NCBI GenBank assembly: GCA_019638615.1
Contig: JAHBTL010000030.1
Location: 1-64,000, forward strand
Direction: 5' to 3'
Length of the DNA: 64,000 bases
Source: Chitinophagaceae bacterium
GTDB taxonomy: Bacteria > Bacteroidota > Bacteroidia > Chitinophagales > Chitinophagaceae
A program made the position numbers and the translations under genes. Position 1 is the first letter of the stretch. Each line of letters opens with the position of its first letter. Shown piece after piece: positions 12,133 through 58,776 of the stretch. The notes below the pieces were generated by a model. That model was not told the origin of the DNA, did not search any database, and saw only the letters and a program-made list of their open reading frames with translations.

Positions 12133-12326
12133 AGCAAACGGTTCAGGGTATGAAAACTTTATACAACCGGATATAACGGATTTTTCAAAAGTGAAGTATC
12201 AGGCTTTCGGCCAATGAACCAAAAACTTCGACCAAAATTGCCTGGGCTGGGTCGTTCGGTGCCGGTATACCATGATCATAGGTTCATTATGCCTGGTGCA
12301 ATGCTTTCACACACCTGTTCAATCCT

Positions 12327-12334
12327 TATCTTTG
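12327..12334 (+). promoter_or_regulatory. Predicted -7 box of purine nucleoside phosphorylase
   Basis: TATCTTTG is an exact TAnnTTTG match, 18 bases before the ATG at 12353. No TTG stands at the expected -33 distance. Confidence 0.5.
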
Positions 12335-12352
12335 CCGCCATAAAATAACACC

Positions 12353-13174: not shown

Positions 13175-13248
13175 TTTAGCTATTTTTTGCCGGGCATTGC
13201 ACCAATTTCAGGTATTTTCGCCGGCTATTGATAGTAAGCTTTCTGCAT

Positions 13249-26879: not shown

Positions 26880-28226
26880 TTAATAATGTTGTTTCAGGTA
26901 GCTGACTTCATTCAAAAAATAGGAAGGTAGCATATCCCAGGGATGGGGATTCAGGATATCTGATGTAACATAGATCCACCCCGCATTCCGGAAATACGCA
27001 TTATCAATATATGATTTGTATTGTGTGGAGCTTACATTATAGGGAAGTACGCCAAAGTTTTCGCGGTCGTAGTTCAATGTCCATGGATCAGGATTCCATG
27101 TTTCAAAAAAGGAGCCATTCTCATAAGTAATCAATACATCAACAACAGGATCTCCGTTGTAAACTAAAAAGCTTTCCGGGACATTGGAGCCGGGATTCGC
27201 TACCACCAGTGAATGCGGATCATGATGATCATTAATATATTCATATATCTGCTGGTAGTAGGGCTCTTTACCGGGTGTCCAGTTTGTGAGGTTGGTCATC
27301 TGGTCAAGAAAAATACCTTCTATATTAGGATACCAGGCATACCACTTATCAATATTGGACTTTACAGTATTTATAGGAATATTGCCAAAATCGGTATCTA
27401 CATACCCGATGGGATGCCCACCGGCGCTAATGAAATTGTTGATAGCAGTAACATAAGCCGGATCCGCAGCAGCTCCCGGTCCGCTGGCCGGGTTAATGAT
27501 CGCCCAAACACGATCCTGCTGGACTGCAGCAGCAGCATTGAGCGTATTCCAATAACCCGGTGAAGTAACGGGGTTAAAATAAGCAGGAACCAGTACATTC
27601 AACTGATCTGTTAAACCGGTTGGCGGAGGCGTTCCGAATATAGCAGCATTTCCCGAAACAGGTATACGGCTTCTGAGGGCAAAAGAGCTATTGATATCCC
27701 AGGCGCCTACTCTTATAGCATTTGCCACTGTTCCAAGAGCTGACTTAAATACGCTTACCTCCAGCACCGTACTGCCTGCAACTGATGCCACGGAGGTGGC
27801 TCCTAAAGCGTTCCATGTAAACCCTGTTCCTGTAGAGGAAAACAGCGCTCCGTTCTCAATAAGAAAGTCGAAGCCTTCAGACGTCCACACATCTGCATTA
27901 AATCCTGTAAGGGCATTATAATCTGCATCAATAAAAAGGTCATAATAAGGCCCCATACCGGTTCCCTGAACCAGGAAATAGAACTTTGAAGCGTCATGCG
28001 CTACTTTCAATACCGTTGTGCTTTGCCCGGTGGCAGTAGCAACAGCAGGCACTCCTGCCCAATCTGAGGCATTACCGTCAACTGTTATAGATACAAAAGA
28101 CGGTGAACCCGAAGAACGCGCTGATTTAGCTGACATTGCAGCATCCTCTACAAAACGGGCATTCTTGGTACAGGAAACGATTCCAAGTAAACCCACGATG
28201 AACGTGTTTAAAATAAGCCTTTTCAT
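26880..28226 (-). CDS. Spherulin-4 (GH135-like) family lipoprotein with N-terminal CBM9-like domain
   Basis: The 448-residue lipoprotein precursor has its lipobox Cys at about 19 (LLGIVSC). Residues about 44-190 look like a CBM9/DOMON-type ligand-binding domain (ITVDGNASDWAGVPAVATA...DLFIDADYNALTGF...EVSVFKSALG). Residues about 208-448 match the spherulation-specific family 4 barrel: LNVLVPAYFNPVTSPGYWNTLN, VWAIINPASGPG, AGGHPIGYVDTDFGNIP, NIEGIFLDQMTN. The fungal member Sph3 (GH135) hydrolyses galactosaminogalactan. Sph3 has an Asp-Glu pair where this protein has Asp308-Gln309, so activity is uncertain. It lies 342 bases after the preceding gene of the sugar locus and has its own terminator, so it may have its own promoter. 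Confidence 0.85.
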   Translation of the reverse strand: MKRLILNTFIVGLLGIVSCTKNARFVEDAAMSAKSARSSGSPSFVSITVDGNASDWAGVPAVATATGQSTTVLKVAHDASKFYFLVQGTGMGPYYDLFIDADYNALTGFNADVWTSEGFDFLIENGALFSSTGTGFTWNALGATSVASVAGSTVLEVSVFKSALGTVANAIRVGAWDINSSFALRSRIPVSGNAAIFGTPPPTGLTDQLNVLVPAYFNPVTSPGYWNTLNAAAAVQQDRVWAIINPASGPGAAADPAYVTAINNFISAGGHPIGYVDTDFGNIPINTVKSNIDKWYAWYPNIEGIFLDQMTNLTNWTPGKEPYYQQIYEYINDHHDPHSLVVANPGSNVPESFLVYNGDPVVDVLITYENGSFFETWNPDPWTLNYDRENFGVLPYNVSSTQYKSYIDNAYFRNAGWIYVTSDILNPHPWDMLPSYFLNEVSYLKQHY

Positions 28227-28568
28227 AAATTGAAGGTTTTAGTTAAAGAAAAATGTTTAGAAATTTTCCGGCAGGCATTGTGATATGACGCCATTACAAT
28301 ATCTTCCCAGAGAGTAAAAGGAATGTAGCTCCGGGCACAATCACCCGGTTTCTTATAAGTTCAGGAGTTGTTTTTACAATAATCTATGACATAGTATCCT
28401 TCGGGGCACTAGTAGTGAGACGGGAGTACGGAACAGGTATAGCGCAATTTTATTGCTGGCTGTATCTTTTGATCAGTATTTTAATGTAAGCTTTGGCTGT
28501 TCAAAAAGAATAATCAATCGGTTGATATGGCTTCTTTCCATTATTCATCAATAATTTTCACGCGGTGC
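28227..28568. other. Intergenic region upstream of the spherulin-4 gene
   Basis: These 342 bases have no open frame, clear hairpin or consensus promoter that I can point to. The length, unusual inside this otherwise tightly packed locus, suggests a separate promoter for the spherulin-4 gene. Confidence 0.4.
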
Positions 28569-28931
28569 TCACAGCGGAGCAGCGTTCACAACGAATGCTT
28601 CTTTCTCCTTGTTAAAATCCAGGATTTTATAAAACTCAATTTTTACCTGTCTTATAAACGGCGCCTGTTGCGCAAATAAAGCTTCATGCGCCTCGTTTTC
28701 TTTGAACAGGTCAAGGGCTTTGCAAGCTGTTCCCATATCGGGAAATTCACACTGCCATATCAATGCGTTTACCGGTTCACCGGCAGAAAGCACCTGCATT
28801 CTTTTACCTTCAGGCAAACCCGGTTGACTTTTTTCCAGTCGTGCAAAGTCCTGCTCCAATGCCATGAAGGCTTCTTCATGGCAGGGATCGAACTGCTGGA
28901 TGATGCGCATTACAATACTCATGTCTTTCAT
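28569..28931 (-). CDS. Small dimeric alpha/beta-barrel (NIPSNAP-like) protein
   Basis: This 120-residue cytoplasmic protein has the pattern of a ferredoxin-like dimeric alpha/beta barrel: a first strand (MSIVMRIIQQFDP), helix (HEEAFMALEQDFARLEKS), strands (RMQVLSAGEPVNALIWQCEFPD), helix (MGTACKALDLFKENEAHEALFAQQAPFI) and last strand (QVKIEFYKILDF). Such domains bind small ligands or act as mono-oxygenases or isomerase-like enzymes. I cannot name a reaction. It follows the PIG-L gene by 20 bases and is part of the sugar operon, so an accessory role in sugar handling is likely. ATGs at 28919 and 28910 are alternative starts. Confidence 0.7.
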   Translation of the reverse strand: MKDMSIVMRIIQQFDPCHEEAFMALEQDFARLEKSQPGLPEGKRMQVLSAGEPVNALIWQCEFPDMGTACKALDLFKENEAHEALFAQQAPFIRQVKIEFYKILDFNKEKEAFVVNAAPL

Positions 28932-28951
28932 TTTTTAATGATGCTCGTTCC

Positions 28952-29830
28952 TTAGCTGCTGTTTTTTCCGAAAACGTAAACCTGGTCGCAGGGCCTGCCG
29001 GTTGCAAGCAGTTCCTGCAACAGCTTTGCCCGGGTCCGTATCCCTGTTTTATACACTTCTTCTACCTGGCTTATATAATACTTGAAAGCGTAGTGTATCA
29101 TCAGCTCGGGGTCGAACTCAAAGGTTTTTACGGTAAGCGCATGGCGCCGGACAAAATGGTATATCCTTTGTTGCTCTGCCGGAGTTGCGATGCCTCCGTA
29201 AGGTTTATCTTCCTGGAAATAGAAAGTAGCTTTGGCAGCGTCCACTGTTTCAGCAGCAACGGCTATTGCCGCTTCGCGTACAATAAAATGGTCAATGTGT
29301 TCTTTGAATGCCACGGGAAAGACCAGTGCAGTATCCTCCCTGCACGACAATTGTCTTATCCTGTCTTTCATCCTTGCAAATATTTGCTTGTCCTGCTCGT
29401 TAAAGTCTTCGTACATGCCATGCGGGAATTCCATTTCGCTGTCTTCTAAAATTTTACCGCGAACAAAACATTCGTTTTCGCCGACAAGCTCATAAGTATA
29501 ATTAAACACGCCAAGCAATTCATCCAGACAGCCCTGGTCTTCAAGCAGCCTTTTACCTGTTGCCAGCTTGATCCTGTCTAAGCTCTGGTCTGCATTTCCG
29601 GAACCGGTCCTAGCCAGATAATTACTCCGGGAAAACAATATCTTGATATGAAACTTTTTGGTACCTAATAATCCTGCATTGCACAGCTCATTCACATAGC
29701 CTCCAAGCATAAAAAGGAAATCATCGAAGTGAGGTGAGAATACAATGATATTGGACTCGAGGATCACTTTTTCGATTGACGTAACAGCCTCGCCTGTTCT
29801 AATCCATTTTTGTTCGATACTTTCATTCAT
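28952..29830 (-). CDS. PIG-L (LmbE-like) family deacetylase
   Basis: This 292-residue cytoplasmic enzyme has the zinc-site motifs of N-acetylglucosaminyl deacetylases: SPHFDDFLFMLGG (His34, Asp36, Asp37), which replaces the usual PHPDDE, and HIDHF (His178, Asp180, His181). The usual Glu after PHxDD is Phe here. PIG-L enzymes remove the acetyl group from N-acetyl-hexosaminides; the archaeal chitin pathway uses a relative (Dac) together with a GlcN6P deaminase. No signal peptide is seen, so it would act on imported sugar. It lies between the PfkB kinase gene (24 bases upstream) and a small unknown, within the polysaccharide locus. Confidence 0.88.
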   Translation of the reverse strand: MNESIEQKWIRTGEAVTSIEKVILESNIIVFSPHFDDFLFMLGGYVNELCNAGLLGTKKFHIKILFSRSNYLARTGSGNADQSLDRIKLATGKRLLEDQGCLDELLGVFNYTYELVGENECFVRGKILEDSEMEFPHGMYEDFNEQDKQIFARMKDRIRQLSCREDTALVFPVAFKEHIDHFIVREAAIAVAAETVDAAKATFYFQEDKPYGGIATPAEQQRIYHFVRRHALTVKTFEFDPELMIHYAFKYYISQVEEVYKTGIRTRAKLLQELLATGRPCDQVYVFGKNSS

Positions 29831-29854
29831 TGTTTATTGTTTCAATTCTTCAAA

Positions 29855-30931
29855 TTATAGTGAACATTCATTTACCTGCCTGAAAAGGGCCGCAAACCGC
29901 TTCCCTGTGTCTGTGCTTTCAGAGAATGATCTTAATACATTTGCATTGGCGGACGGATGAATCGTATCAGGAGATGTAACAGCATAAGCAGCAAGCAGAT
30001 TTCCCAATGATATAGCATCCGGTTCCGGATCTGCATGAAGGGACAGCCCGCAACACAGTCCACAGATGGTGCCGGACAGAAAAGCGTCTCCTGCTCCGGC
30101 AGTTGATATAGCGTCCACGCGATAAGCCGGCTGATGAAAAATATCGTTGCCGGTAAAAGCATATACTCCGCCCGGTCCATCCGTTACCAAAACGGATATC
30201 GAAGGATTTTCACTGTACAATACCTGCACGCATTGCTCAATAACTTCCGTTTTCGAAACATTGGTTACCGACAGGTTCGAAATACTTTCAGCTTCATCTA
30301 TATTTATAGACAGTATATCGGTTAATGCAAACCCTCCCTGTTCCCTGAAAGCAGCCACTTCACCTGAAAGCAGGGAAGCGATATTCAGGCTTTTTCGTTT
30401 TCTGCCATGCTCCAGCAGCCGGATGCGTGCATCAAGCGGCACTTCAGGCACAGACAATACTATTTCTTTGCCGCTATGATCTGCACCGGAAAAATATTCG
30501 TCAATATCGCCTGCAGTCATCAGGGAGGAAGCGCTATTGCCGGTTGTAATATTTCCTCCCGTTTTGTCGGGGTATTGAAAGCATACGCTGAACAAAGTGC
30601 TGTACCCGGGAATGACTTTTACACCTGCCATATCCATACCCGTTGAACGCATTTGCTCAACCAGCGATTTGCCTGTTTCATCATCTCCTACTTTACCAAC
30701 AGGATGCACGTCAAACCTACCCGGTGCGCCTAAAAGCGTGGCTATATAGTGTAGTATGATATGCTGCTTGCAATAATCTTTGAACGGCAGCAATGCTCCC
30801 AGCCTGCTCTCATTTCTTCCCAGCGTATGATTTTGCTCTAAAAGAAAAAACATACCGGAGCCAATCCCTCCTGTACCAATGATGCTTTTATACGCATAGT
30901 CTTCGGTATGTACAGCGCACAGTTTATTCAT
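29855..30931 (-). CDS. PfkB family carbohydrate kinase
   Basis: This 358-residue cytoplasmic sugar kinase has the PfkB signature 2, ISTAGAGDAFLSGTICG, with catalytic base Asp282. The N-terminal glycine-rich stretch is IIGTGGIGSGMFFL and the ATP-region pattern is VLVTDGPGGVYAF (about 247-259). Its start overlaps the stop of the NagB-like gene by 4 bases (ATGA), which implies translational coupling, and the PIG-L deacetylase follows. The simplest pathway is deacetylation, phosphorylation and deamination of an imported amino sugar. The exact hydroxyl phosphorylated is unknown. Confidence 0.9.
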   Translation of the reverse strand: MNKLCAVHTEDYAYKSIIGTGGIGSGMFFLLEQNHTLGRNESRLGALLPFKDYCKQHIILHYIATLLGAPGRFDVHPVGKVGDDETGKSLVEQMRSTGMDMAGVKVIPGYSTLFSVCFQYPDKTGGNITTGNSASSLMTAGDIDEYFSGADHSGKEIVLSVPEVPLDARIRLLEHGRKRKSLNIASLLSGEVAAFREQGGFALTDILSINIDEAESISNLSVTNVSKTEVIEQCVQVLYSENPSISVLVTDGPGGVYAFTGNDIFHQPAYRVDAISTAGAGDAFLSGTICGLCCGLSLHADPEPDAISLGNLLAAYAVTSPDTIHPSANANVLRSFSESTDTGKRFAALFRQVNECSL

Positions 30932-31833
30932 ATGAACAGGTCTTCAAATTGAAGATCAGGATCTTCTGAAACAGGGTGTGATGCTGTTTCCTTCGTTGCC
31001 GTGATCAATGCATCCGCATGCTCCTGCAGCAACGTTATGGGATACTCGGTCGTTGGTTCAGAAAATAAAGCAACCCTAAGAGCAGTTTGCTTCCAGGCAC
31101 CGGTATCGCTGAACAGTCTTATTTTTTTTGCTGAAAGGCATTCCTTTAATCCCAATGTAACAGACATGGGAGGAACGAACTGGTAAGCCGTACCAAATGT
31201 CCGTTGCGCCAACGCAATGATGGTATCATAATTATTTTCCTGGATGCGGATGGTTGAGTTCCTCAGATCTTCAAGCGTGATGTGGCTAAAGGGATTTCTC
31301 CGGGCCTGGTTGTATGCAATATGCCCGTCCTGTCCCCAGCCCCCGTAAGTGATATCAACAGGCGCCTCATTGATCCTGCTTTTTATTTCGGGGATATTTT
31401 CTGCATTCAGCCAGTGACGGTTTTTAACAGGAACCGCCAGCGCTTCTTTTACCGGGCCATAAAAATGCCTTTCCATGAAACCCCGGAAATTATACGGATG
31501 TCTCCGGGGCAATTCCCTGCCCTGCCAGTCCAGGCATTCGTCCATATGAAAGACCACCAGCTTTTGCAGGCTCACATTTTCAGCATTGACGAGGTCTGTA
31601 AACGGCTTATACCAACAGGATGGTCCACAGGGGATGATCGCCCTCGTTTCCCTGTTTTTTGCATTATTCAGTTGTATCTCATCAACCAGTTCCTGCGCCA
31701 TCAATATTCCCATCGCCCGGGAATCGGCAACAATACGCAACGGTACTTTCCTTTCCGGGTGGTTCTCTAACTGGCCGGAAGGTATCTTACACCAGGTGTA
31801 AAGCTCCTTTGGAGTAATGAATGATTTTGTCAT
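30928..31833 (-). CDS. NagB-like glucosamine/galactosamine-6-phosphate deaminase-isomerase family protein
   Basis: This 301-residue cytoplasmic protein of the NagB/6-phosphogluconolactonase fold shows VFHMDECLDW (Asp98, equivalent of the NagB proton-transfer Asp72) and GGWGQDGHIAYNQA (Asp169, His171). The late stretch MSVTLGLKECLSAKKIRLFSDTGAWKQTALRVALF also follows NagB. The Glu148 of E. coli NagB corresponds to Gln176 here, and the usual G-I-G before DGH is GGWG. NagB converts GlcN6P to Fru6P and ammonia; relatives act on GalN6P. Coupled to the PfkB kinase by a 4-base overlap, 33 bases after the GH36-like gene. The changed residues suggest an altered substrate or mechanism. Confidence 0.85.
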   Translation of the reverse strand: MTKSFITPKELYTWCKIPSGQLENHPERKVPLRIVADSRAMGILMAQELVDEIQLNNAKNRETRAIIPCGPSCWYKPFTDLVNAENVSLQKLVVFHMDECLDWQGRELPRRHPYNFRGFMERHFYGPVKEALAVPVKNRHWLNAENIPEIKSRINEAPVDITYGGWGQDGHIAYNQARRNPFSHITLEDLRNSTIRIQENNYDTIIALAQRTFGTAYQFVPPMSVTLGLKECLSAKKIRLFSDTGAWKQTALRVALFSEPTTEYPITLLQEHADALITATKETASHPVSEDPDLQFEDLFI

Positions 31834-31866
31834 GGCTTTTAAGAATTGTGCAGGCTGTATGAAAGC

Positions 31867-33891
31867 CTACAGCGGAACGGCATCCAGTATTTTTACTTCA
31901 AATGGTTCAAGGGTAATTGTAAAATGACGGCCCTGCGCCACCGGCTGCTCCTTACCTGTTTCTTTTCTTGCATTCGAAAATGCATAATCCGTCATTGCAT
32001 GATCCGGGATATCAAACAGGCGGGCAACATCCACCTCGAAACTTTGCTTTTTATCTGAAGGATTTCTCAGGCTCACGTACCCGCCTTTTTCCGACCAGGC
32101 TGCATAGCCGTATACTTCGTCTTTTGCAGGATCGCCGCCCACCCAATGTACATCAGGCATCAGGTCTGCTTTGCTTCTTGCCCATTCAATTGCCTGCTTC
32201 AGGCAATCCCAGTTTGCCGTATTCAGCTTATGCGGGTTCACATACATTTCCTGCAGGCTTGTGCCTGTTGCAAAAAACGACCAGATCTCATCTGCTATAT
32301 CCTTGTCATCCATTTCCAGCTTACCCGGAATGCCCTGGTCAGCAATGCACAGCCCGTGATACATCAATGCGCTTAAAGGGTAAAAGGGCGCCCGTTGCAC
32401 TACATTCCGGTATGTCTGCCCGTCCCTGTAATTCATCCACTGCTGGCGTTTGGGGCCTTTACCGCCAAGACCGGTGTCATCTCCTGCCCGCCAGATCACA
32501 TCACCGTGATACAGCCAGTAAACAGAAGGCCATGTGCCGATGGTGAGGCTCAGGAAAAGATCAGGCTTTAAAGCGCGTAATTCATGAATAAGCCGGAGCA
32601 TGGCTTCCACATCTTTCTGATATTGACCGGTAACGCCACCGGTACCATTGCCTGCACCAAGCCCGTCAAACTTAAACATGGATACATTGTATTTTTTAAT
32701 GAAGTCAGCCGTTACTTCGCTGAACCGTTTGTAATAAACAGGGCCGGCTAATGAAAACCCGTTCTCATTGGTTTCGAAAGGCGGATTTTGCTTTGCGCCA
32801 TATTCCAGGCGTTGCGGCTTGCGGATATCATATCCACCCCAGGGCGACATCCATACACCGATGCCGGCCCCATATTGCAGGGCAGCATTCCTTACATTGG
32901 TAAATCCGTCCGGGAACCCTTTATGGAACTGCCAGAGTGTTTTATAATCATCCCAGCCATCATCAAACAAAAAGGCATTCATGGGAACATTTCTTTTCGT
33001 AATAAGGCTGTCGCCCCATACTTTGATCCTGTCCAGGCACAGGCTGTCGTTCAGGATTCTGTCTGCATAAGATAGGTCGTACCAGGAATTATAATGCAGC
33101 AACTGGCGATAGGTATTTGTTCTTTCCCGCTCTAAATAGTAAAGAAACCCCCTGCGCAACTGTTTTGCAGGCGTAACGCCCCATACTGAACTGACTGCAA
33201 ATGTTTCGCCGGGCACAAGCGGCAGGGCACGGGGCAACAACAGCACAGACACGGTTTTGCTTTGCTCAAATTTGCTCAATGGATTTTCCACGGCAAAGAA
33301 CATCGTTTGGTATGTTACAGGCGACCCATCAACTGTGCCCTGTTTTTTTACCGGGATGGCGGCAGGGAAACTGATCACCCGGAATTTTGTAATGTCAATT
33401 TCCTTACCGGGCGTAAAGGAAAGCGTTTGCCTGACATAATTGGAGCCGTTTCTAAGCTCCGCTTTCCATTCTACCTGTAAAGCAGTTTGAGCATTTTCCA
33501 ATACTGCTGTTACCATTTTCCCATCTGCACGCCGGCCTTCTGTTCTTTCACCGGGATCACCCGGCAGGCTGGCAGCAGTTACCTCATCCTTCAGCGTAAA
33601 ATCATTGGAAGTGAGCAGGGTTCCATTGGCAAGCAGCAACGAGAACAGGGGCGTACCTGCCGGAAGTGTTACGGCCTGTTTGTTTACTTTATCGCGGAAA
33701 GCGGCCAGCCGGATTTTTTTGTTTGCCTGCCGGATCTCCATTTTTAAAATATCATTTTCCAGCACTGCCTGCTGCGCTTCCGACACAACGGTTGCGTTGC
33801 CCGGCTGCTTACCCAGGTATGATACCTGGGCGTTCGATATAGAGACGGTAGTGATTGTACACAATAGTAAAATAAAGGCTTTGCGTATCAT
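31867..33891 (-). CDS. GH36-like alpha-glycosidase (alpha-galactosidase / alpha-N-acetylgalactosaminidase type)
   Basis: The 674-residue exported enzyme has a signal peptide (MIRKAFILLLCTITTVSISNAQ). The N-terminal beta-sandwich (about 25-245) is followed by a clan GH-D-like barrel with LFDDGWDDY (Asp310-Asp311), GIGVWMSPWGGY, the probable nucleophile Asp409 in MFKFDGLGAGNG and a probable acid/base Asp in WRAGDDTGLGG (about 471-472). A C-terminal beta domain (about 590-674) follows. Proteins of this type are sometimes annotated as enterotoxin by old homology. The clan cleaves alpha-linked galactose or GalNAc with retention. It sits between the PKD lipoprotein and NagB-like genes, 11 and 33 bases away. 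Confidence 0.8.
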   Translation of the reverse strand: MIRKAFILLLCTITTVSISNAQVSYLGKQPGNATVVSEAQQAVLENDILKMEIRQANKKIRLAAFRDKVNKQAVTLPAGTPLFSLLLANGTLLTSNDFTLKDEVTAASLPGDPGERTEGRRADGKMVTAVLENAQTALQVEWKAELRNGSNYVRQTLSFTPGKEIDITKFRVISFPAAIPVKKQGTVDGSPVTYQTMFFAVENPLSKFEQSKTVSVLLLPRALPLVPGETFAVSSVWGVTPAKQLRRGFLYYLERERTNTYRQLLHYNSWYDLSYADRILNDSLCLDRIKVWGDSLITKRNVPMNAFLFDDGWDDYKTLWQFHKGFPDGFTNVRNAALQYGAGIGVWMSPWGGYDIRKPQRLEYGAKQNPPFETNENGFSLAGPVYYKRFSEVTADFIKKYNVSMFKFDGLGAGNGTGGVTGQYQKDVEAMLRLIHELRALKPDLFLSLTIGTWPSVYWLYHGDVIWRAGDDTGLGGKGPKRQQWMNYRDGQTYRNVVQRAPFYPLSALMYHGLCIADQGIPGKLEMDDKDIADEIWSFFATGTSLQEMYVNPHKLNTANWDCLKQAIEWARSKADLMPDVHWVGGDPAKDEVYGYAAWSEKGGYVSLRNPSDKKQSFEVDVARLFDIPDHAMTDYAFSNARKETGKEQPVAQGRHFTITLEPFEVKILDAVPL

Positions 33892-33902
33892 GATCGTTCT
33901 TG

Positions 33903-34775
33903 TTACAGTTTAATAGTAAGGAATTGAGAGGTAGGCAGGTGACTGACCGGAACGGAGCCGTCCGAGGCATAAGTTATGGGATTATCGTCCATCAGGGCAA
34001 AACTGAGCTGACCTGTGGGATTACCCAGGGCGCTCCGCTGGATGGAGAACTCGATAGCCGCCACATCATCTGTTATGATTCTCCTGGAGAATTTCATAGC
34101 ATTCTCGAACTTGGCAACCTCAGACCAGGACCAGGCAGCAGGGTCTGTACCCTGGTGGGCATATATTGATCCAATGCTCAGGTTAGGGTTGTCCATGTTG
34201 TAAGTGCCCTGGCATAGAAACTCTGCGCCTGATCCTGCCGGGTAGAACCATACGCTGAAACCTGTAGCGGGATTGTTGTCCTTGTTAATGTATAAGGTAA
34301 ACATGCCGAAGTCCATATCCTCAACCCCTTCTACATAAAAAAAGACGTTTTCCGCCGATGCAAAAGTCTTGACCGCTTTTATCGTACCTCCGGTACCATC
34401 ATCATTCTCCTTTGTATATTCCACATGCTCCCAATCCGCAAACTCCCCGTCAATTTTAATGTTCGGTCCAATAATGGTAACGGTATCAACGAATGTATTA
34501 CTCTCCGCACCGTTCTTTACCGTGAGGCTCACTAAGAATGGTCCCTTCTGGTGATAAATATGAGAGGGGTTCCGTGCGGTTGCGGGATCAGAACCATCCC
34601 CAAAATCCCAGGAATATTCTTTGGCGTTGGTGGAAAAGTTGGTAAAGCTTGCCTGAAAGCCATCTACTACATAACTGAATACTGCTTTCGTTCCGTTTCC
34701 GCCATCATTTTTTTTGCAGGAGCTTCCTGCTAAAAGAACAAGGAAAAGCATGGATATGACTGTGTATGTTTTCAT
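33903..34775 (-). CDS. PKD-domain surface lipoprotein with CBM9-like domain
   Basis: The lipoprotein has about 290 residues, starting MKTYTVISMLFLVLLAGSSC with lipid-Cys at about 20. An in-frame ATG at 34796 adds 7 residues. A PKD domain (about 30-102) shows the typical KEYSWDFGDGSDPATARNPSHIYHQKGPFLVSLTV. A CBM9/DOMON-like domain follows (about 105-290: IKIDGEFADWEHVEYTKE...FTLYINKDNNPATGF...AAIEFSIQRSALG), similar in layout to the N-terminal domain of the spherulin-4 protein of the same locus. It stands where SusE/SusF-type glycan-binding proteins usually do, so surface binding of the polymer is the likely role. Confidence 0.82.
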   Translation of the reverse strand: MKTYTVISMLFLVLLAGSSCKKNDGGNGTKAVFSYVVDGFQASFTNFSTNAKEYSWDFGDGSDPATARNPSHIYHQKGPFLVSLTVKNGAESNTFVDTVTIIGPNIKIDGEFADWEHVEYTKENDDGTGGTIKAVKTFASAENVFFYVEGVEDMDFGMFTLYINKDNNPATGFSVWFYPAGSGAEFLCQGTYNMDNPNLSIGSIYAHQGTDPAAWSWSEVAKFENAMKFSRRIITDDVAAIEFSIQRSALGNPTGQLSFALMDDNPITYASDGSVPVSHLPTSQFLTIKL

Positions 34776-34796
34776 TTTATTTTGTATTGAAATCAA

Positions 34797-36209: not shown

Positions 36210-36220
36210 GCGTTCCGGTA

Positions 36221-37690
36221 TTAATTATATCCCTGGTTCTGAATGAATTTGCCTTTGCCCTCGCTTACCGTTTTGAGGGAGAACGGAAGCACCACCTTAA
36301 ACTCCTCCGTTGTTGTAGCATGTTTCACAATACGCGCTCTTTCAAGGAACTTTCCATGCCGGATCAGGTCTGCCCGGTACTGCCCGTTCTCGCACCAGAA
36401 CTCATGGCTTCTTTCTGTAAGTAACAGGTCATTAAATGCGTTGAGTGTATTATAGTCCGCTAATTGTTTATCATTCAACTGCGCTCTCCTGCGCACAATG
36501 TTTACCAACTCCATCGCTTCTGCCGCGGGGTTACCGCCTTCATTAGCAATGGCTTCTGCTTTTGACAGCAGCACATCAGCATACCGGTATACAATAATAT
36601 CCACGGTAGATAAAGCGGTGGTCCGTTTGTCATCGGGATTTACTTTTAACGGTATAGGCCCCAGGTCCATCACGTTGCCCGGGTTTGTTCTGCTGTACAC
36701 TATACCATCAGTACCGGTATATTGTGTGATCAGCATTGTTTTGCGGGCATCGGCCGGTTCAAAGGAATCATAGAACCACCAGGTGCTTTGCACGGTCTGG
36801 TAGCCGCCCAGCGGTGCATAGTTCTGCGGCAGCGCATACATTTGCCAGGAGCTTTCGCTGGTGCCTTCATAATTACAGGGGATGGCCCAGATCACCTCTT
36901 TGCTTTTTTTAGCGCCATCGAGGCTCCACAGCCCAACATAATCATTGCTGAGTGAAAAATAATTATAGGCAATGATCTCATCGCAAACCTGGCGCACTTT
37001 AGCCCACTGCTTTTCATGCAGGTAAAGCCTGATCAGCACCATTTTTGCCAGTGCCTTGCTGAACCGGCCGTATTCCGCTGCCGCAGGGGCGGGAAGGTCT
37101 TTAGCCGCTTCTGTAAGATCCGCTTCAATAAATGCAACCATTTCCTCATTAGAGAGGCGCGCCAGCGGCTCTTCAACAAGCGGGTTTTTCAATACTTCCA
37201 AAGGAGCTACCACAATGGGGCCGTAAAGGTCAAAGAGATTATAACAAAGCAATCCTCTTGCACAGCGCACTTCTGCAATGGCAGCTTTTTTAACCTCCTC
37301 GTCAAGCGAAGAATTTTGGATCTGGTCAATGGTCAGCGTCATCCGGCTGATCTTATTGTAAAAATTGTCGTAGAAATAAGTTACGCCTTCAACGTCTGTG
37401 GGCGTGTAGTTCAGTAGCGACAATTTCTGCTGGGACCCGTATTTCCCTACAAGAATCTCGGTGGTATTATCCATCCATATCAATCCCCTTTCTGTTTGTC
37501 CGTTTATTCCATCCCACCAGGAACCGCGGAGGGGGTAGTAGCAGGCATTCACAAGGGCCTGTATATCTTCCCTGGAGTTGGGGAAAATGCTGGGATTTAT
37601 TTCTGAGTAATCTTTGGAAACGAGGCGTTTGGTGCAACCCGTACCGCATATCACGAAGATCACTAAAATGGTGAAAGCTATTTTTTTCAT
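36221..37690 (-). CDS. SusD/RagB family glycan-binding lipoprotein (locus 1)
   Basis: The 489-residue outer-membrane lipoprotein has its lipid-Cys at about 19 (FVICGTGC). The N-terminal TPR-like region includes ALVNACYYPLRGSWWDGINGQTERGLIWMDN, with aromatic residues typical of glycan contact. The C-terminal RagB/SusD signature is FNDLLLTERSHEFWCENGQYRADLIRHGKFLE. SusD forms the lid on the SusC barrel and captures the oligosaccharide. It follows susC by 27 bases and precedes the DUF4832 gene by 11 bases. Confidence 0.95.
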   Translation of the reverse strand: MKKIAFTILVIFVICGTGCTKRLVSKDYSEINPSIFPNSREDIQALVNACYYPLRGSWWDGINGQTERGLIWMDNTTEILVGKYGSQQKLSLLNYTPTDVEGVTYFYDNFYNKISRMTLTIDQIQNSSLDEEVKKAAIAEVRCARGLLCYNLFDLYGPIVVAPLEVLKNPLVEEPLARLSNEEMVAFIEADLTEAAKDLPAPAAAEYGRFSKALAKMVLIRLYLHEKQWAKVRQVCDEIIAYNYFSLSNDYVGLWSLDGAKKSKEVIWAIPCNYEGTSESSWQMYALPQNYAPLGGYQTVQSTWWFYDSFEPADARKTMLITQYTGTDGIVYSRTNPGNVMDLGPIPLKVNPDDKRTTALSTVDIIVYRYADVLLSKAEAIANEGGNPAAEAMELVNIVRRRAQLNDKQLADYNTLNAFNDLLLTERSHEFWCENGQYRADLIRHGKFLERARIVKHATTTEEFKVVLPFSLKTVSEGKGKFIQNQGYN

Positions 37691-37717
37691 ACTTAATATT
37701 CTTTTCTGGTTTGAATG

Positions 37718-40700
37718 TTAAAAGCTGAAATTGGCGCCAATGGTATAGGTTCGTACAAACGGGTAAGCGGCAGTGTACGAGTCCGTCTCCGGGTCCACGC
37801 CTTTGTAAGGCGTAATCACAAACAGGTTATTGGCATCAAGATGAAGGTTGACGGAGCTGAATAATTTACCCACCCATTTTTGCGGCAGCTCATAGCCTAT
37901 GGAAATATTCTGCAGCCTCACAAACCAGGCATCTTCCAAAAAGAAATTGCCCGAACCATAAGGAGACCAGCCAAAGAAAGAGCTGGGCTGGGTAGTGGAA
38001 GGACGATCAGGCGTCCAGCGGTTCTTTACCGTGCGCAGCCCGTTGTACCCGTATTTATTAATGCCGTCTGCCGATACGCCATACGTAACATAGTTAGGAT
38101 CATTCATTCTCCTTCCGAACATGGAATTGAAATCAATACCAAGCGTGAAATTTTTATACCTGAATCGGTTGGTCATTCCGGCTATAAGCCCCGGGTCGCT
38201 CGTTCCTATCATGCGGGTATCGGCATCGTCAATCCTGCCATCGGGCTTGCCTGTTCTGATGAACCTCCCATCCGGGTCTACTACAGGATTGCCGTTTGCA
38301 TCCCGCTCGTAACCGTCAATATCGCTGATCTTGATCATTCCCGGCAAAAGCCCGGGCTGGGCAGGCACTGTTTCTCCTGTTTGCATAATACCATCTGACA
38401 TGCGGGTGTATATAGCTCTTATCGGGTCTGTGGCATTCTGGTATATTGCCGGCTTCCAGTCAGGGGCTCTCTCTTTCCAGGTATCTTTAAATTTAGACAC
38501 GGTAACGATCGTTCTCCATTCAAAATCCTTTGCCTGGAGTGTACGGAGGTTGAGGGTCACTTCAAACCCTTTGCTGCGGGTGGAGCCGATATTGGCAATA
38601 ATGCTGTTGATCTCATGGTAAGAATTAAGCGGTTTGATATCCAGCAAATCGGATATCACCTTATCATACACTTCTATGGAACCACTGAGCCTGCCACTGA
38701 GCATTGCAAAGTCGAGCCCGATATTCATCTCTGTAGTGGTTTCCCATTTCAGATCCGGGTTTTCCAGTCGTGCAGGAGAAACGCCGATCGTAATATCATC
38801 ATTGCCGGAGAGATAGGCAGGATACGCCATATAAGCGGCAAAGGCGTTGCTCCCTATAGAAGCATTACCTGTTTGCCCGTAACCGGCCCTGAGCTTAAGC
38901 TGTGAAATGGTGTTTTTCAAAGGCTCAAAGAATTTTTCCTCTGCCACATTCCAGCCCAGCGCTACAGCAGGGAATGTTGCCCATTTATGATTCCTGGCAA
39001 ATACACTGGCGCCGTCGGTACGTATGCTGAAAGAAGCCATGTAACGATCCCGGAAATTATAATTCAACCTTCCGAAATAAGAAGCGATCACATTTTCAAC
39101 ACGGGAAGAGCTCACTGTTTTGGTTCCTGTACCTGCATTGAGATTATTCCATAAAAAGGCGTCGGTAATAAAACCACTGTTACCTTCATTGGCGTAAGCT
39201 GTTTTGGTTTGCTGTTCGGATACGCCTGCCAGCACGTCAAGCTGGTGGGAACCGGCGATGCTTGTATTGTAATGGATCGTGCCTTCCACCAGGTAATCAT
39301 TGCGGTCAATGCTCCCGATCGTGGCTCTCCCATTCTCCTTGGCGCCGTATAATGTGGTGCGTGGCAGATAATTCGATCTTGAGGTATATCCTCTGTCCAG
39401 ACCGCCTTTCAGCCTGATCACAAGCCCCTTTACCGGGCTGATGTCCAGCGCGGAATTCAGCAGCATGCGCTCAATCACGCCCTTGTCGGTAATGGTTAAC
39501 AGGGAGTAGGGATTGGGCTGGGTAGCCAGCTCCGGGTTGAGCGGATAACTCCCGTCGTCATCAATGGGCAGGATATGCGGACCCTGCTGGATACCAGCCC
39601 TGATGACCCCGGAATTTTCAAACTGACCGGCGCCTAACTGGCTGTTATCGTTATTGATACGGCTTCCGGTAAGACTGATGCCCAGCTTTACATATTGGTT
39701 GAACTGCTGGTCGAGATTGCCGCGAAACGAATATCTTTTCATTGCTGAGTTGCTGATAATGCCCTGCTGGTCGAAATAATTGCCTGAAACGAGGTATTTG
39801 GTATTTTTTGTCCCCCCGGTCACTGAAATATTGTGTTGTTGTGTACGTCCGTTCCTTGTCACCAGGTCTATCCAGTCGGTACCGCGGCCTACATTATTAA
39901 TCGCATTTTGGGTATAGCGCTGATGATAGTCTCCGGCAACAGGGTTGGCCATTGCTTCTTCCACCGTTTTTGTTCCGAACGGGGCTACATTGTTCTCAAA
40001 CAGCCATTGCTCCCAGGCTGCTTCATTGCGTACCTGCATCCATTCGTTCAGGGGCAGCACATCAAAAGAGTTGCTGTAGCGCTGGAAAGAAAAATTATTG
40101 GAATACTGTACCGTAGCCCTTCCTTCCGCACCTCTTTTGGTGGTGATCAATATAACGCCATTGGCGGCGCGGGCGCCGTAAATAGAAGTGGAGCTGGCAT
40201 CTTTCAGGATGTCTATAGATTCAATGTCGTTGGGATTAAAAGAATTGAGTATGCTTTGGGTGCCTGCCTGGTAACGGCCGCCATTGTCCGGCTGCTGCAG
40301 GTCTGATATAGGAAATCCATCCACCACGATAAGCGGCTCATTGCTGGCATTGATAGAGCCTGCGCCCCTGATCAGGATATCAAGCCCTCCGCCCGGCTGT
40401 GCGCTGTTTTGCCGGATCATAACGCCGGCGGCCTTCCCCTGCAGCATGTGGCCCACATCAGGCGCGGAGGAAAGTACAAGGTCTTTTGCTTTTACGGAAG
40501 AAACAGCGCCGGTCAGGTTCTTCTTGCGCTGGGTGCCGTAACCTACCACCACCACCTCATCCAGAGACCTGTCTTTTGCGGCAAGTATAATGTTGATCGT
40601 GGTCCTGCCATTTATATCTTCCGTAACATCTGCATAACCCGTATAGCTGAAAACAAGCCGGCCATTGGCAGGAGCAGTTATCTGGTAACCGCCTTCTTCA

Positions 40701-40870
40701 TTGGTGGATGTGCCGGATGTGCCTCCCTGCACGATTACAGAAACGCCCGGAAGCGGCCTGCCGTCCTCCCCTGCCGTTACTTTACCGGAAACCGTTACCT
40801 GTTGTGCATATACCATGTTGCCTGAAATGGTGAGCAGGAATAACAACACCCGGGTCGTGAAATATTTCAT
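37718..40870 (-). CDS. SusC/RagA family TonB-linked outer-membrane protein (locus 1)
   Basis: This TonB-dependent transporter of about 1050 residues imports oligosaccharides together with SusD. The open frame extends to 41032, but the predicted promoter and one operator lie around and inside that extension. The signal peptide begins at MKYFTTRVLLFLLTISGNMVYAQQ, so I place the start at 40870. A carboxypeptidase-like domain (VSGKVTAGEDGRPLPGVSVIVQGG) is followed by the SusC motif LDEVVVVGYGTQRKKNLTGAVSSV. The plug contains LQGKAAGVMIRQNSAQPGGGLDILIRGAGSINASNEPLIVVDGFPI, and the large barrel ends TYTIGANFSF. It is the first gene of the alpha-glycan locus, with a LacI-type regulator upstream. Confidence 0.95.
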   Translation of the reverse strand: MKYFTTRVLLFLLTISGNMVYAQQVTVSGKVTAGEDGRPLPGVSVIVQGGTSGTSTNEEGGYQITAPANGRLVFSYTGYADVTEDINGRTTINIILAAKDRSLDEVVVVGYGTQRKKNLTGAVSSVKAKDLVLSSAPDVGHMLQGKAAGVMIRQNSAQPGGGLDILIRGAGSINASNEPLIVVDGFPISDLQQPDNGGRYQAGTQSILNSFNPNDIESIDILKDASSTSIYGARAANGVILITTKRGAEGRATVQYSNNFSFQRYSNSFDVLPLNEWMQVRNEAAWEQWLFENNVAPFGTKTVEEAMANPVAGDYHQRYTQNAINNVGRGTDWIDLVTRNGRTQQHNISVTGGTKNTKYLVSGNYFDQQGIISNSAMKRYSFRGNLDQQFNQYVKLGISLTGSRINNDNSQLGAGQFENSGVIRAGIQQGPHILPIDDDGSYPLNPELATQPNPYSLLTITDKGVIERMLLNSALDISPVKGLVIRLKGGLDRGYTSRSNYLPRTTLYGAKENGRATIGSIDRNDYLVEGTIHYNTSIAGSHQLDVLAGVSEQQTKTAYANEGNSGFITDAFLWNNLNAGTGTKTVSSSRVENVIASYFGRLNYNFRDRYMASFSIRTDGASVFARNHKWATFPAVALGWNVAEEKFFEPLKNTISQLKLRAGYGQTGNASIGSNAFAAYMAYPAYLSGNDDITIGVSPARLENPDLKWETTTEMNIGLDFAMLSGRLSGSIEVYDKVISDLLDIKPLNSYHEINSIIANIGSTRSKGFEVTLNLRTLQAKDFEWRTIVTVSKFKDTWKERAPDWKPAIYQNATDPIRAIYTRMSDGIMQTGETVPAQPGLLPGMIKISDIDGYERDANGNPVVDPDGRFIRTGKPDGRIDDADTRMIGTSDPGLIAGMTNRFRYKNFTLGIDFNSMFGRRMNDPNYVTYGVSADGINKYGYNGLRTVKNRWTPDRPSTTQPSSFFGWSPYGSGNFFLEDAWFVRLQNISIGYELPQKWVGKLFSSVNLHLDANNLFVITPYKGVDPETDSYTAAYPFVRTYTIGANFSF

Positions 40871-41017
40871 GGTGATTTTTTTTATTGCGGTGAAGATGTA
40901 AGGAATACGGATAGTCATTTTCAAGGGGAAGAAAGGGAGCCTGTCAGGCGCCGGACCGGGTGAGCAGGCACCCGGAAATAACTGTACATTGAACATATGC
41001 AGATCGTTTTGAGTTAA

Positions 41018-41035
41018 ACTGTTTTCGTACACAGT
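41018..41035. promoter_or_regulatory. LacI-type operator-like palindrome O1
   Basis: ACTGTTTTCGTACACAGT is an imperfect palindrome centred on CG with 7 of 9 base pairs symmetric. It lies at the expected transcription start of susC. It shares TCGTACACAG with the second palindrome 56 bases upstream. A central CpG and a half site ending ACA are typical of LacI-family operators. Confidence 0.65.
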
Positions 41036-41039
41036 ACCG

Positions 41040-41070
41040 GAAAATTATAACAAATGCATAAACAAACCAA
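41040..41070 (-). promoter_or_regulatory. Predicted susC promoter, locus 1
   Basis: On the minus strand, TTG (41070-41068), 20 bases, then TAATTTTC (41047-41040) match the Bacteroidota consensus except for the last -7 base, with the same 20-base spacing as the rpsA promoter. The two operator-like palindromes flank and overlap it. Confidence 0.6.
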
Positions 41071-41096
41071 ATTTTTGTGTTCGTACACAGAAATTT
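41069..41096. promoter_or_regulatory. LacI-type operator-like palindrome O2
   Basis: This 28-base palindrome is centred on CG at 41082-41083 with 12 of 14 pairs symmetric (core TGTGTTCGTACACA). It overlaps the -33 element of the susC promoter. Its centre is 56 bases from that of O1. Confidence 0.7.
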
Positions 41097-41444
41097 ATTT
41101 TACGATACGTGCACGATGCTTTGTGTAATTAAGCGGTAAAGCCCGGATAGCGGCCTTCTTTTCCGGGGGTTATGCTATAACGGCTCTGCGTACCAACTTC
41201 TGTGAAGCTAAAAGGACTTATACCACCGTGAGTTTTGGGTCTTAGCCAGGTCAGAAAAGTATATTTCACGCAGCCCTGCCTGCCGGCAGGCTGAAGGCGA
41301 AGTCCACAAAGAAGCATTTGCTGTGAACGCTGCTCCGCAGTGAACGCCGCGGGAAAATTATTGATGAAATATTGGAAAGAAAATATATCACCCTGTTGAT
41401 TATCATTTTTGAACGCCCAAAACCCATGTTATACCCGGAAGATA

Positions 41445-42542
41445 TTATGGTAACCCCAGAACTGCAGGCTTGTCTTTATCAATAAAGTAGTTGATATTTT
41501 CTTTTGTAACGATATCCAGCGGGAGATACTTTATTTCTTCTACCTTTCTCTTAAAAACCAGGTGCTCCGTAAGCTGGTAGATGCCCCAATAGCCCTGCGC
41601 CCTTGCATTTTGATTGATCAAAAAGCTGATCCGCCCTTTTTCAAGAAAATAAAGGTTAGGAGGTATAAGGTCATAACCGATTACAGACGGGTGTTCAATA
41701 TGTCTTTGTTCAAGATATTTGGCAACCTCGTAGGCCTTGCAGGTAGTAACAAAGATGCTGGCAAGATCAGGATGGTCTTCAATAATTTCATCGAGCGGCT
41801 TTATGAATGCAGCAGTATTTGCCCGGTTCAACTGCACACTGATAATATTAAACTGGCCATCGAGGTTGTTCTGAAAAAAATAATTCCTGAATCCTTTTTC
41901 TTTTTTCTGCAAATGTGCAGAATTGCTGATGTCCTCATCTATATGGGCAATAAGCACCGTGCAGGGCTTATGTTGTCCGTAATGGATCAATTTGCCGGCA
42001 AGCAGTCCGCTTTGATAGGAGTCCTGTCCTATATAGCTTAAGGGGTCGTACTCCGCGATCTGGGTATTAAAAAGAACAAAGGGAATGTTCATTTTTTTCC
42101 ACTTCTCAAAAAAAGCAAGGCTTTCATGGTAAAAGATGGGAGACACCAGGATGCCATCGGGCTTATTTTTTGTTAATGCATTGGCATTGTCAATAAAGGA
42201 TTGCTTATCAGACGGATCAAATATATATTCCGTAACCCTGATCCCGTATTGCTTAAGGTCTTTGGCAGCCTTGGCAATGCCCTGCTGCGGTTCAAGCCAG
42301 TAAGAATCAACATGCGCATCGGGCACCAGGGCGGCAATTATATGTTTTTTGCTTGAAACAAGGGCCCGGGCCATAAGATTAGGCTCATAATGCATCTCCT
42401 GGAGCGCCTTCATCACCTTGTCGTGCTTTTTCACAGAAACATTGCCCCTGTTGTGCAAAACACGGTCTACCGTGCCAACAGACACGCCTGCTTTCAAAGC
42501 AATATCTTTTATCCGGACTACAGGATCATTGGTAATCTTCAT
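41445..42542 (-). CDS. LacI family transcriptional regulator
   Basis: This 365-residue DNA-binding protein has the LacI helix-turn-helix at about 9-60 (RIKDIALKAGVSVGTVDRVLHNRGNVSVKKHDKVMKALQEMHYEPNLMARALVSS). A periplasmic-binding-protein-type effector domain follows (about 66-345), of the kind seen in regulators of sugar loci (IAALVPDAHVDSYWLEPQQGIAKAA). It lies upstream of and in the same direction as susC, and two palindromes with central CG flank the susC promoter. It is therefore the probable repressor of the alpha-glycan locus, released by an imported mono- or oligosaccharide. Confidence 0.93.
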   Translation of the reverse strand: MKITNDPVVRIKDIALKAGVSVGTVDRVLHNRGNVSVKKHDKVMKALQEMHYEPNLMARALVSSKKHIIAALVPDAHVDSYWLEPQQGIAKAAKDLKQYGIRVTEYIFDPSDKQSFIDNANALTKNKPDGILVSPIFYHESLAFFEKWKKMNIPFVLFNTQIAEYDPLSYIGQDSYQSGLLAGKLIHYGQHKPCTVLIAHIDEDISNSAHLQKKEKGFRNYFFQNNLDGQFNIISVQLNRANTAAFIKPLDEIIEDHPDLASIFVTTCKAYEVAKYLEQRHIEHPSVIGYDLIPPNLYFLEKGRISFLINQNARAQGYWGIYQLTEHLVFKRKVEEIKYLPLDIVTKENINYFIDKDKPAVLGLP

Positions 42543-48464: not shown

Positions 48465-48494
48465 TTAAATATTAGTCATTCAACAGTCATTCAG

Positions 48495-55471: not shown

Positions 55472-55517
55472 AATTTTCGTTTTAACATTAAATGATATTC
55501 ACTGATTTAGTTTCACA

Positions 55518-58580: not shown

Positions 58581-58776
58581 AAGCAAACAATTAATAGCAG
58601 TTATTAATAATATTACAAGATAATCGTTACACATAAAGCTATTCAAAATAGGCCTACGGTTGAATTTATACCCTACATCAATACTACATCACTACACCCA
58701 GACATCAATTTTTATGCCTCTTCAATACTACAACGCGGAATAATTTATTCTAATTTAGTATTATCTTTCTGCCTGT

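What the first reader, a model, noticed from the sequence alone, without database searches (positions are those of the whole stretch)
26880..42542. Candidate polysaccharide utilisation locus for an alpha-linked GalNAc-containing polymer (galactosaminogalactan-like)
One strand carries SusC, SusD, a DUF4832 lipoprotein, a PKD/CBM9-like lipoprotein, a GH36-like alpha-glycosidase, a NagB-like deaminase, a PfkB kinase, a PIG-L deacetylase, a small alpha/beta-barrel protein and a spherulin-4 (GH135-like) lipoprotein, under a LacI-type regulator. Established knowledge: fungal Sph3 (GH135) cleaves galactosaminogalactan, GH36 includes alpha-galactosidases and alpha-N-acetylgalactosaminidases, and PIG-L plus a sugar-phosphate deaminase handle amino sugars in archaeal chitin breakdown. 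Inference: surface spherulin-4 and the GH36-like enzyme cut an alpha-Gal/GalNAc polymer, SusCD imports it, and PIG-L, PfkB and NagB-like enzymes convert the amino sugar to a glycolytic intermediate. I do not know of a described Bacteroidota locus with this exact set.
Basis: partly seen in the sequence, partly recalled or inferred. Interest (0 to 1): 0.75.

Follow-up and report, generated by a model that had tools for sequence, protein, structure and literature searches.

The report
Gene cluster for eating GalNAc polymers
This stretch of a Bacteroidota genome looks like a complete kit for cutting up, importing and burning a polymer of the amino sugar N-acetylgalactosamine, probably the sticky matrix polysaccharide of bacterial or fungal biofilms, which would make biofilm glue a food source.

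Summary
The alpha-GalNAc reading gains new evidence. (1) DUF4832 loci of other Bacteroidota often hold known GalNAc genes (GH109, AgaS, hexosamine kinase): 11 of 27 loci, by hallmarks chosen after looking; 3 of 5 strong AgaS genes lie within 5 kb of a DUF4832 gene, 0.03 expected. (2) The GH36-fold enzyme has a 53% relative in one such locus, and a more distant one ends the Klebsiella aga operon. (3) A published DUF4832 protein from a streptococcal pel operon breaks Pel aggregates; Pel is alpha-1,4-GalNAc/GalN. So DUF4832, not spherulin-4, is probably the main endo-enzyme, and Pel/galactosaminogalactan the likeliest substrate. Weak points: spherulin-4 has Gln for the Glu beside its catalytic Asp; PIG-L and NagB-like score below Pfam cut-offs; the NagB-like protein's closest plasmid relative lies in a nucleoside cluster; 16 of 27 loci lack a hallmark; the window's exact set was not seen in any locus examined. 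Nothing biochemical was tested.

The parts
41445..42542 (-). LacI-family regulator
   Evidence: Pfam LacI 5e-16, Peripla_BP_4 3e-39
37718..41032 (-). SusC/RagA TonB-dependent transporter (likely start near 40870)
   Evidence: NCBIfam OMP_RagA_SusC 8e-249; 55-66% identical SusC in L135, L137, L139, L157
36221..37690 (-). SusD-like lipoprotein
   Evidence: Pfam SusD_RagB 3e-22; 59-68% identical in L135, L137, L139, L157
34797..36209 (-). DUF4874-DUF4832 lipoprotein: predicted surface endo-glycosidase; invariant Glu183 and Glu285
   Evidence: Pfam; alignment of 24; AlphaFold pLDDT 89.2, TIM barrel like GH5/beta-amylase; published Pel-active DUF4832 protein SIR_1591
33903..34796 (-). PKD + CBM9-like lipoprotein, predicted surface glycan-binding protein
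31867..33891 (-). GH36-fold alpha-glycosidase with signal-peptide-like start, predicted periplasmic exo-alpha-GalNAcase; DDGW 310-313, Asp409 and Asp472 invariant
   Evidence: 53% relative in L140; Klebsiella aga operon
30928..31833 (-). NagB-like sugar-phosphate isomerase/deaminase
   Evidence: 1cd5 E 1.9e-13 with D72, D141, H143, R172, K208 matched and E148 to Gln (alignment; multiple alignment); below Pfam cut-off
29855..30931 (-). PfkB-family sugar kinase (ribokinase-like, substrate unknown)
   Evidence: Pfam PfkB 2e-22; best solved relatives ribokinases
28952..29830 (-). PIG-L-like predicted cytosolic de-N-acetylase
   Evidence: Pfam PIG-L E 0.0018, below cut-off; HFDD and HIDH read in the sequence; 1 of 395 genomes, its own
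28569..28931 (-). 120-aa small protein in the same operon, family unidentified
   Evidence: no Pfam hit; 20 bases after PIG-L
26880..28226 (-). Spherulin-4 (GH135-like) lipoprotein with N-terminal CBM9-like module
   Evidence: Pfam 1e-38; Sph3 structures 5d6t/5c5g E 2e-6; N-module matches the PKD protein's C-terminal module, E 2e-6

Best explanation
A polysaccharide utilisation locus for an alpha-linked GalNAc polymer, most likely of the alpha-1,4-(GalNAc/GalN) kind (bacterial Pel or fungal galactosaminogalactan). Inferred steps: the surface DUF4874-DUF4832 glycosidase, helped by spherulin-4 and held to the glycan by the PKD/CBM9-like lipoprotein, cuts the polymer; SusCD imports oligosaccharides; the periplasmic GH36-fold enzyme trims alpha-GalNAc from the ends; GalNAc enters by a transporter encoded elsewhere; in the cytosol the PIG-L-like enzyme removes acetate, PfkB phosphorylates and the NagB-like enzyme deaminates/isomerises, giving tagatose-6-phosphate or a like intermediate that the genome's own AgaS/PfkB/KbaY cluster on contig C67 could finish. 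Shown: gene content, predicted folds, neighbourhood. Inferred: substrate, order and products of every reaction.
For: DUF4832 occurs in 18 of 395 genomes, 29 places, merged to 27 loci; 11 of 27 have a GalNAc hallmark within 10 kb: GH109 (5), AgaS (3), GH36-like (2, window included), APH-type hexosamine-kinase-like gene + GalE only (1). Strong AgaS (E<1e-100) within 5 kb of DUF4832: 3 of 5, expected 0.03 (7 weaker matches left out); GH109 within 10 kb: 5 of 26, expected 0.22. GH31 stands next to DUF4832 in two of these loci. GH36-like relative at 53% in L140 with APH-type kinase, GalE, NagB-PIG-L fusion and mutase; a relative (33% over alignment A1, 36.7% over 76% of the query) ends the Klebsiella aga operon. 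GH36/GH27 fold. Published DUF4832 protein SIR_1591 disrupts S. intermedius Pel aggregates as PelA does (PMC12345266, passages); DUF4832 genes lie in Gram-positive pel clusters (PMC7112168, passages). Spherulin-4 is the GH135 family (Sph3 acts on acetylated GAG: PMC12054363, passages). Same genome: GH20, MFS, NagB-like and PIG-L genes together (L110) and DUF4832, AgaS, PfkB, KbaY together (L165).
Against: 16 of 27 DUF4832 loci show no such hallmark, including an own-genome copy of the core (L137); hallmarks were fixed after looking. Only 2 of 42 GH36-like loci from the genome collection hold AgaS/AgaR relatives; 23 of 42 are Burkholderiaceae (Paraburkholderia 19), where the usual neighbour is a GH35-type gene. 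A Bacteroidota relative in G100, split over two contig ends (35.6% and 29%), had no other window or aga homologue of note nearby (L097, L098; not searched for GH109). Spherulin-4 has DQ where Sph3 and L100 have DE. PIG-L and NagB-like are below family cut-offs; the NagB-like protein's best plasmid match is in a nucleoside cluster. No inner-membrane sugar transporter in the locus. GH109 and GH31 would also suit mucin-type GalNAc. In the SIR_1591 paper its deletion had no phenotype, and the passages I saw show aggregate disruption, not a defined product.
Confidence: 0.62

Rival explanations
1. The locus eats alpha-GalNAc-capped or O-linked glycoproteins (mucin-type or bacterial O-glycans), not a GalNAc homopolymer; the DUF4832 enzyme cuts some other linkage.
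For: GH109 and GH31 genes occur in DUF4832 loci, and in B. theta GH109 and GH31 enzymes serve mucin GalNAc with an APH-type GalNAc kinase (PMC11992087, passages).
Against: No M60-like peptidase, sialidase, fucosidase or beta-galactosidase among the window genes scanned; the DUF4832 and spherulin-4 families both have studied members acting on alpha-1,4-GalNAc polymers.
Confidence: 0.2
2. The locus targets a heteroglycan containing alpha-galactose (for example a lipopolysaccharide or capsule), and the GH36-fold enzyme is an alpha-galactosidase; PIG-L/NagB/PfkB handle another amino sugar released with it.
For: Best solved matches by fold are mostly alpha-galactosidases; in Paraburkholderia the GH36-like gene lies beside a GH35 beta-galactosidase-type gene.
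Against: Close homologue in a locus with an APH-type hexosamine-kinase-like gene (L140) and a relative in the aga operon; no galactokinase or uridylyltransferase among the locus genes scanned.
Confidence: 0.13
3. PIG-L, PfkB and NagB-like genes are an unrelated passenger cassette, e.g. for a pentose or nucleoside-derived sugar.
For: The NagB-like protein's best plasmid relative (38.5%) sits with nucleoside hydrolase, adenosine deaminase and ribokinase genes in Vibrio; PfkB is closest to ribokinases; NagB's Glu148 is Gln.
Against: Tight spacing within the operon; NagB-PIG-L fusion relatives lie within about 8 kb of DUF4832 in four other loci (L139, L140, L155, L157; cut by the stretch end in L139 and L157), and a NagB-like/PIG-L pair lies with GH20 elsewhere in the same genome.
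Confidence: 0.2

Closest known systems
Streptococcus intermedius pel operon enzyme SIR_1591 (DUF4832)
   Same: DUF4832 domain, similar length (468 vs 470 aa), TIM barrel with beta-amylase-like matches in both
   Different: There it sits in a Pel-producing operon of a Gram-positive; here it is a lipoprotein in a SusCD uptake locus. The two sequences were not aligned here
B. thetaiotaomicron PUL BT4240-50 (GH109, GalNAc 1-kinase; PMC11992087)
   Same: Bacteroidota locus for GalNAc glycans; loci L135, L140, L155 here carry APH-type kinases and L139, L155, L157 GH109
   Different: The window has no GH109 and no APH-type kinase; instead a GH36-fold enzyme and PIG-L/NagB-like/PfkB
aga (GalNAc) operon of Klebsiella aerogenes
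   Same: It ends with a homologue of the window's GH36-fold enzyme
   Different: PTS uptake, AgaA and AgaS there; SusCD uptake, PIG-L and NagB-like here
Fungal galactosaminogalactan hydrolase Sph3 (GH135)
   Same: Spherulin4 domain, catalytic Asp kept
   Different: DE to DQ at the active site, N-terminal CBM9-like module, bacterial lipoprotein

Membership tests
Bacteroidota polysaccharide utilisation locus | adjacent SusC and SusD with glycan-active enzymes | tested here: met
   spacing
Bacteroidota polysaccharide utilisation locus | induction by its glycan | not testable with these tools
   needs RNA-seq
GH36 (clan GH-D) | clan GH-D fold | tested here: met
GH36 (clan GH-D) | KxD nucleophile, second Asp about 60-70 residues on, DDGW motif (motifs recalled) | tested here: met
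   K407-x-D409, D472, D310-D311-G312-W313 invariant in 25 and 26 sequences; not checked by superposition
GH36 (clan GH-D) | sequence match to the Melibiase model PF02065 | tested here: not met
   no match with the limit at E 5; five relatives have no Pfam match at E<=1
GH135 / Spherulin4 | Spherulin4 domain over cut-off | tested here: met
   133.6 against 30.2 bits
GH135 / Spherulin4 | active-site Asp-Glu pair and distal Glu of Sph3 | tested here: inconclusive
   Asp kept, next residue Gln not Glu; distal Glu aligned only with bacterial L100
PIG-L de-N-acetylases | Pfam PF02585 over cut-off | tested here: not met
   19.2 against 28.2 bits; hhalign against other PIG-L proteins gives 22.9% probability over 29 columns
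PIG-L de-N-acetylases | metal and base motif HxDD plus distal HxDH (recalled) | tested here: inconclusive
   HFDD aligned with the HPDD of other PIG-L proteins; HIDH is in the sequence, but the alignment did not line it up with their distal HxDH
NagB glucosamine-6-phosphate deaminase | curated nagB cut-off | tested here: not met
   75.1 against 236.9 bits
NagB glucosamine-6-phosphate deaminase | catalytic D72, D141, H143, E148 (recalled roles) | tested here: not met
   first three kept, E148 is Gln
DUF4832 proteins like Pel-active SIR_1591 | DUF4832 domain with TIM barrel and a conserved acid pair | tested here: met
   that the acid pair defines the family is my inference
DUF4832 proteins like Pel-active SIR_1591 | hydrolysis of Pel | not testable with these tools
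   needs enzyme assay

The most novel reading that the evidence does not exclude
A family of Bacteroidota PULs specialised in eating the biofilm-matrix polymer alpha-1,4-(GalNAc/GalN) (Pel and galactosaminogalactan), built on a SusCD-DUF4832-PKD core in which DUF4874-DUF4832 is an unclassified endo-alpha-GalNAc hydrolase family, with interchangeable exo-enzymes (GH36-fold, GH109, GH31) and three interchangeable intracellular GalNAc routes, the window's being a deacetylate-first route by PIG-L, PfkB and NagB-like enzymes.
Probability: 0.42. Interest if true: 0.8.

Novelty: new variant of a known kind. Interest (0 to 1): 0.64.

Why it matters
Pel and galactosaminogalactan are matrix polymers of bacterial and fungal biofilms. 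In the listings of my paper searches I saw no uptake and catabolism locus for them (open-licence library, only the top rows of three of the four lists seen). If true, matrix polymer would be a nutrient for some Bacteroidota, DUF4832 and the GH36-fold family would gain a testable function, and new matrix-degrading enzymes would be at hand. It also suggests a function for a family without a Pfam match whose E. coli members RefSeq names 'enterotoxin'.

Tried and rejected
Link between the 120-aa protein and the 'antibiotic biosynthesis monooxygenase' gene next to the Paraburkholderia GH36-like gene: no detectable similarity. Orthologues of the PIG-L and NagB-like genes as locus markers: PIG-L in 1 of 395 genomes, its own, no plasmid match; NagB-like in the own genus: the other 11 of 12 genomes have matches at 20-33% identity only. 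Window PfkB as an AgaS-associated kinase: only 22-26% to those of L136, L150, L165, E about 0.01. Spherulin-4 as a conserved PUL part: rejected, 4 of 395 genomes; L100 is beside what looks by eye like a kdp cluster. The Draconibacterium relative L018 (54%) gave no hit to the other window genes or the aga genes in its 13.6 kb. DUF4832 on a Spirosoma plasmid has no clear GalNAc neighbour in its gene table. E. coli near-identity search: no match. DUF4832 domains against PDB sequences: only three hits at E<=1, in the C-terminal part of the profile with sorting-domain entries among them. Papers: a study of proteobacterial GalNAc pathways (recalled) is not held; a search joining 'Ast' and glycoside hydrolase gave none. 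The proximity test assumes random, independent placement; the GH109 copies of G407 and G349 are clustered, so its figure is too strong. Hallmarks were found with a query set of my choosing and after looking, so loci counted as 'without' may hold others; several stretches were cut by contig ends, and one weak DUF4832 place (G441:C1:4968926) was not fetched, only covered by the genome-wide AgaS and GH109 searches.


Full report
Observation. From SusC to the 120-aa gene the spacings run from a 4-base overlap to 33 bases, and spherulin-4 follows after 342 bases, so a single operon under the LacI gene is likely (inference). SusD, DUF4832, PKD and spherulin-4 proteins have lipoprotein-like N-termini, the GH36-like protein a plain signal-peptide-like start, and NagB-like, PfkB and PIG-L none (read by eye; no predictor was run).

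Its neighbours elsewhere. In Klebsiella aerogenes a homologue (33% in alignment A1; 36.7% over 76% of the query by tblastn) follows kbaY at the end of the aga operon: agaR divergent, then kbaZ, four PTS genes, nagA/agaA, agaS, kbaY and this gene. In E. coli NGF1 the homologue, named 'enterotoxin' by RefSeq, ends a partly broken cluster with a DeoR regulator and tagatose-bisphosphate aldolase genes; 551 of 5426 E. coli genomes have a match. In Luteibacter and Rhodanobacter it is near AgaR and AgaS relatives, but that is only 2 of the 42 loci. 23 of the 42 are Burkholderiaceae (19 titled Paraburkholderia); there the recurring neighbour, present in 26 of the 45 loci compared, is a gene whose one scanned member is a GH35 beta-galactosidase. 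In the host's order, 11 of 248 genomes had a match, ten of them besides the window's own and none of those full-length in one frame; the G100 gene, split over two contig ends, had no neighbour among the queries used then, bar a weak SusC-like match.

The DUF4832 loci. DUF4832 occurs in 18 of 395 sampled Bacteroidota genomes at 29 places, which I merge to 27 loci (an earlier draw of 198 gave 10). I read the surroundings of 26 of the 27; the missing one is the weak match G441:C1:4968926. SusC and SusD at 55-66% and 59-68% identity with DUF4832 (46-50%) and PKD (37-48%) genes recur in L135, L137, L139 and L157. L140 holds SusC, a SusD-position gene (by eye), PKD, a NagX-like gene (label by eye, no Pfam hit), DUF4832, GalE, the GH36-like gene at 53%, an APH-type kinase, a NagB-PIG-L fusion and a mutase. 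L139 and L157 hold GH109; L155 holds GH109, GH31, an APH-type kinase, GalE, a NagP-like transporter and the NagB-PIG-L fusion; L136, L150 and L165 hold AgaS, PfkB and KbaY relatives; G349 and G407 hold several GH109 genes, with AgaS 17 and 32 kb from DUF4832. With the hallmarks GH109 within 10 kb (5 loci), strong AgaS within 5 kb (3), full-length GH36-like (2, window included) and APH-type kinase with GalE only (1), 11 of 27 loci are GalNAc loci and 16 are not; the hallmarks were fixed after looking. In the 18 genomes, 3 of 5 AgaS matches at E<1e-100 lie within 5 kb of a DUF4832 gene (expected 0.03; 7 weaker matches, E 7e-14 to 2e-6, were left out) and 5 of 26 GH109 matches within 10 kb (expected 0.22), under random placement. 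The full-length GH36-like gene occurs in 2 of 296 Bacteroidota genomes, both times in a DUF4832 locus; five other genomes have only a partial match in longer proteins.

Spherulin-4. The C-terminal half is the Spherulin4 family and resembles Sph3 structures (E 2e-6). Passages of PMC12054363 say Sph3 (GH135) is specific for fully acetylated polymer. The window has GIFLDQ where Sph3 has GIFFDE and bacterial L100 has GIFLDE. I recall that this Glu matters in Sph3; so activity is in doubt. Its N-terminal module resembles the C-terminal module of the PKD protein (E 2e-6) and the PKD proteins of L137 and L135 (E 2e-14, 1e-10), which ties it to this uptake system.

The intracellular module. NagB-like: aligned to E. 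coli NagB it keeps D72, D141, H143, R172 and K208 but has Gln for E148 (residue roles recalled). Its best plasmid relatives are a Vibrio protein (38.5%) in a cluster with nucleoside hydrolase, adenosine deaminase and ribokinase genes, and Haloarcula proteins (29-32%) near aldolase and ketohexokinase genes. PIG-L-like: weak by profile; HFDD aligns with other PIG-L proteins, the distal HIDH is present but was not lined up. PfkB: nearest solved relatives are ribokinases. NagB-PIG-L fusion relatives lie within about 8 kb of DUF4832 in L139, L140, L155 and L157, two of them cut by the stretch end, and a separate NagB-like/PIG-L pair lies with GH20 and an MFS transporter in the same genome (L110). 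So amino-sugar use is likely, but substrates and order are inferred.

Known or new. PULs, GalNAc catabolism by Bacteroidota (PMC11992087, passages: GH109, GH31 and an APH-type GalNAc 1-kinase) and Pel- or GAG-cutting enzymes are known. I saw no paper describing a PUL for Pel or galactosaminogalactan, or this gene set, in the rows listed by four searches (20 of 364; 83: 4 of 4; 95: 15 of 86; 106: 12 of 280; open-licence papers only). I therefore call it a new variant of a known kind.

Noticed in passing
L102 (E. coli NGF1) 12001-13890; L017 11935-13887: Homologues of the window's GH36-fold glycosidase are named 'enterotoxin' or 'Ast' by annotation, yet belong to a glycosidase-like family and, in Klebsiella and E. 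coli, lie with GalNAc/tagatose-type genes; 551 of 5426 E. coli genomes match. The name looks inherited rather than tested; no test was made here.
   Followed up: partly
L137 (own genome contig C18): A second SusC-SusD-DUF4832-PKD set at 48-66% identity in which my queries found no neighbouring GalNAc enzyme.
   Followed up: partly
L165 and L174 (own genome contig C67): AgaS, PfkB and KbaY relatives next to a DUF4832 gene and a sulfatase-modifying-factor-like gene, with GH109, PIG-L and a GH20-like gene (25% by BLAST) about 17-26 kb away: a second GalNAc region in the same genome.
   Followed up: partly
L096 5923-6819; L094 7988-9813; L095 7877-9735: A NagB-superfamily subgroup with PxGP and MDE motifs, in a Vibrio nucleoside cluster and as adjacent divergent pairs in two Haloarcula plasmids near an aldolase; its function is unclear.
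   Followed up: partly
26 of the loci L015-L059, mostly Paraburkholderia and kin: A GH35-type gene recurs with the GH36-like gene, usually convergent and next to it, suggesting a second glycan context for the family (one member scanned).
   Followed up: partly
window 46902-51533 and 53921-58646: A SusC/SusD pair at 46902-51533 (Pfam) and, at 53921-55471, a SusD gene beside a large open frame (55518-58646) not scanned, on the same strand as the locus; their substrates were not looked into.
   Followed up: no
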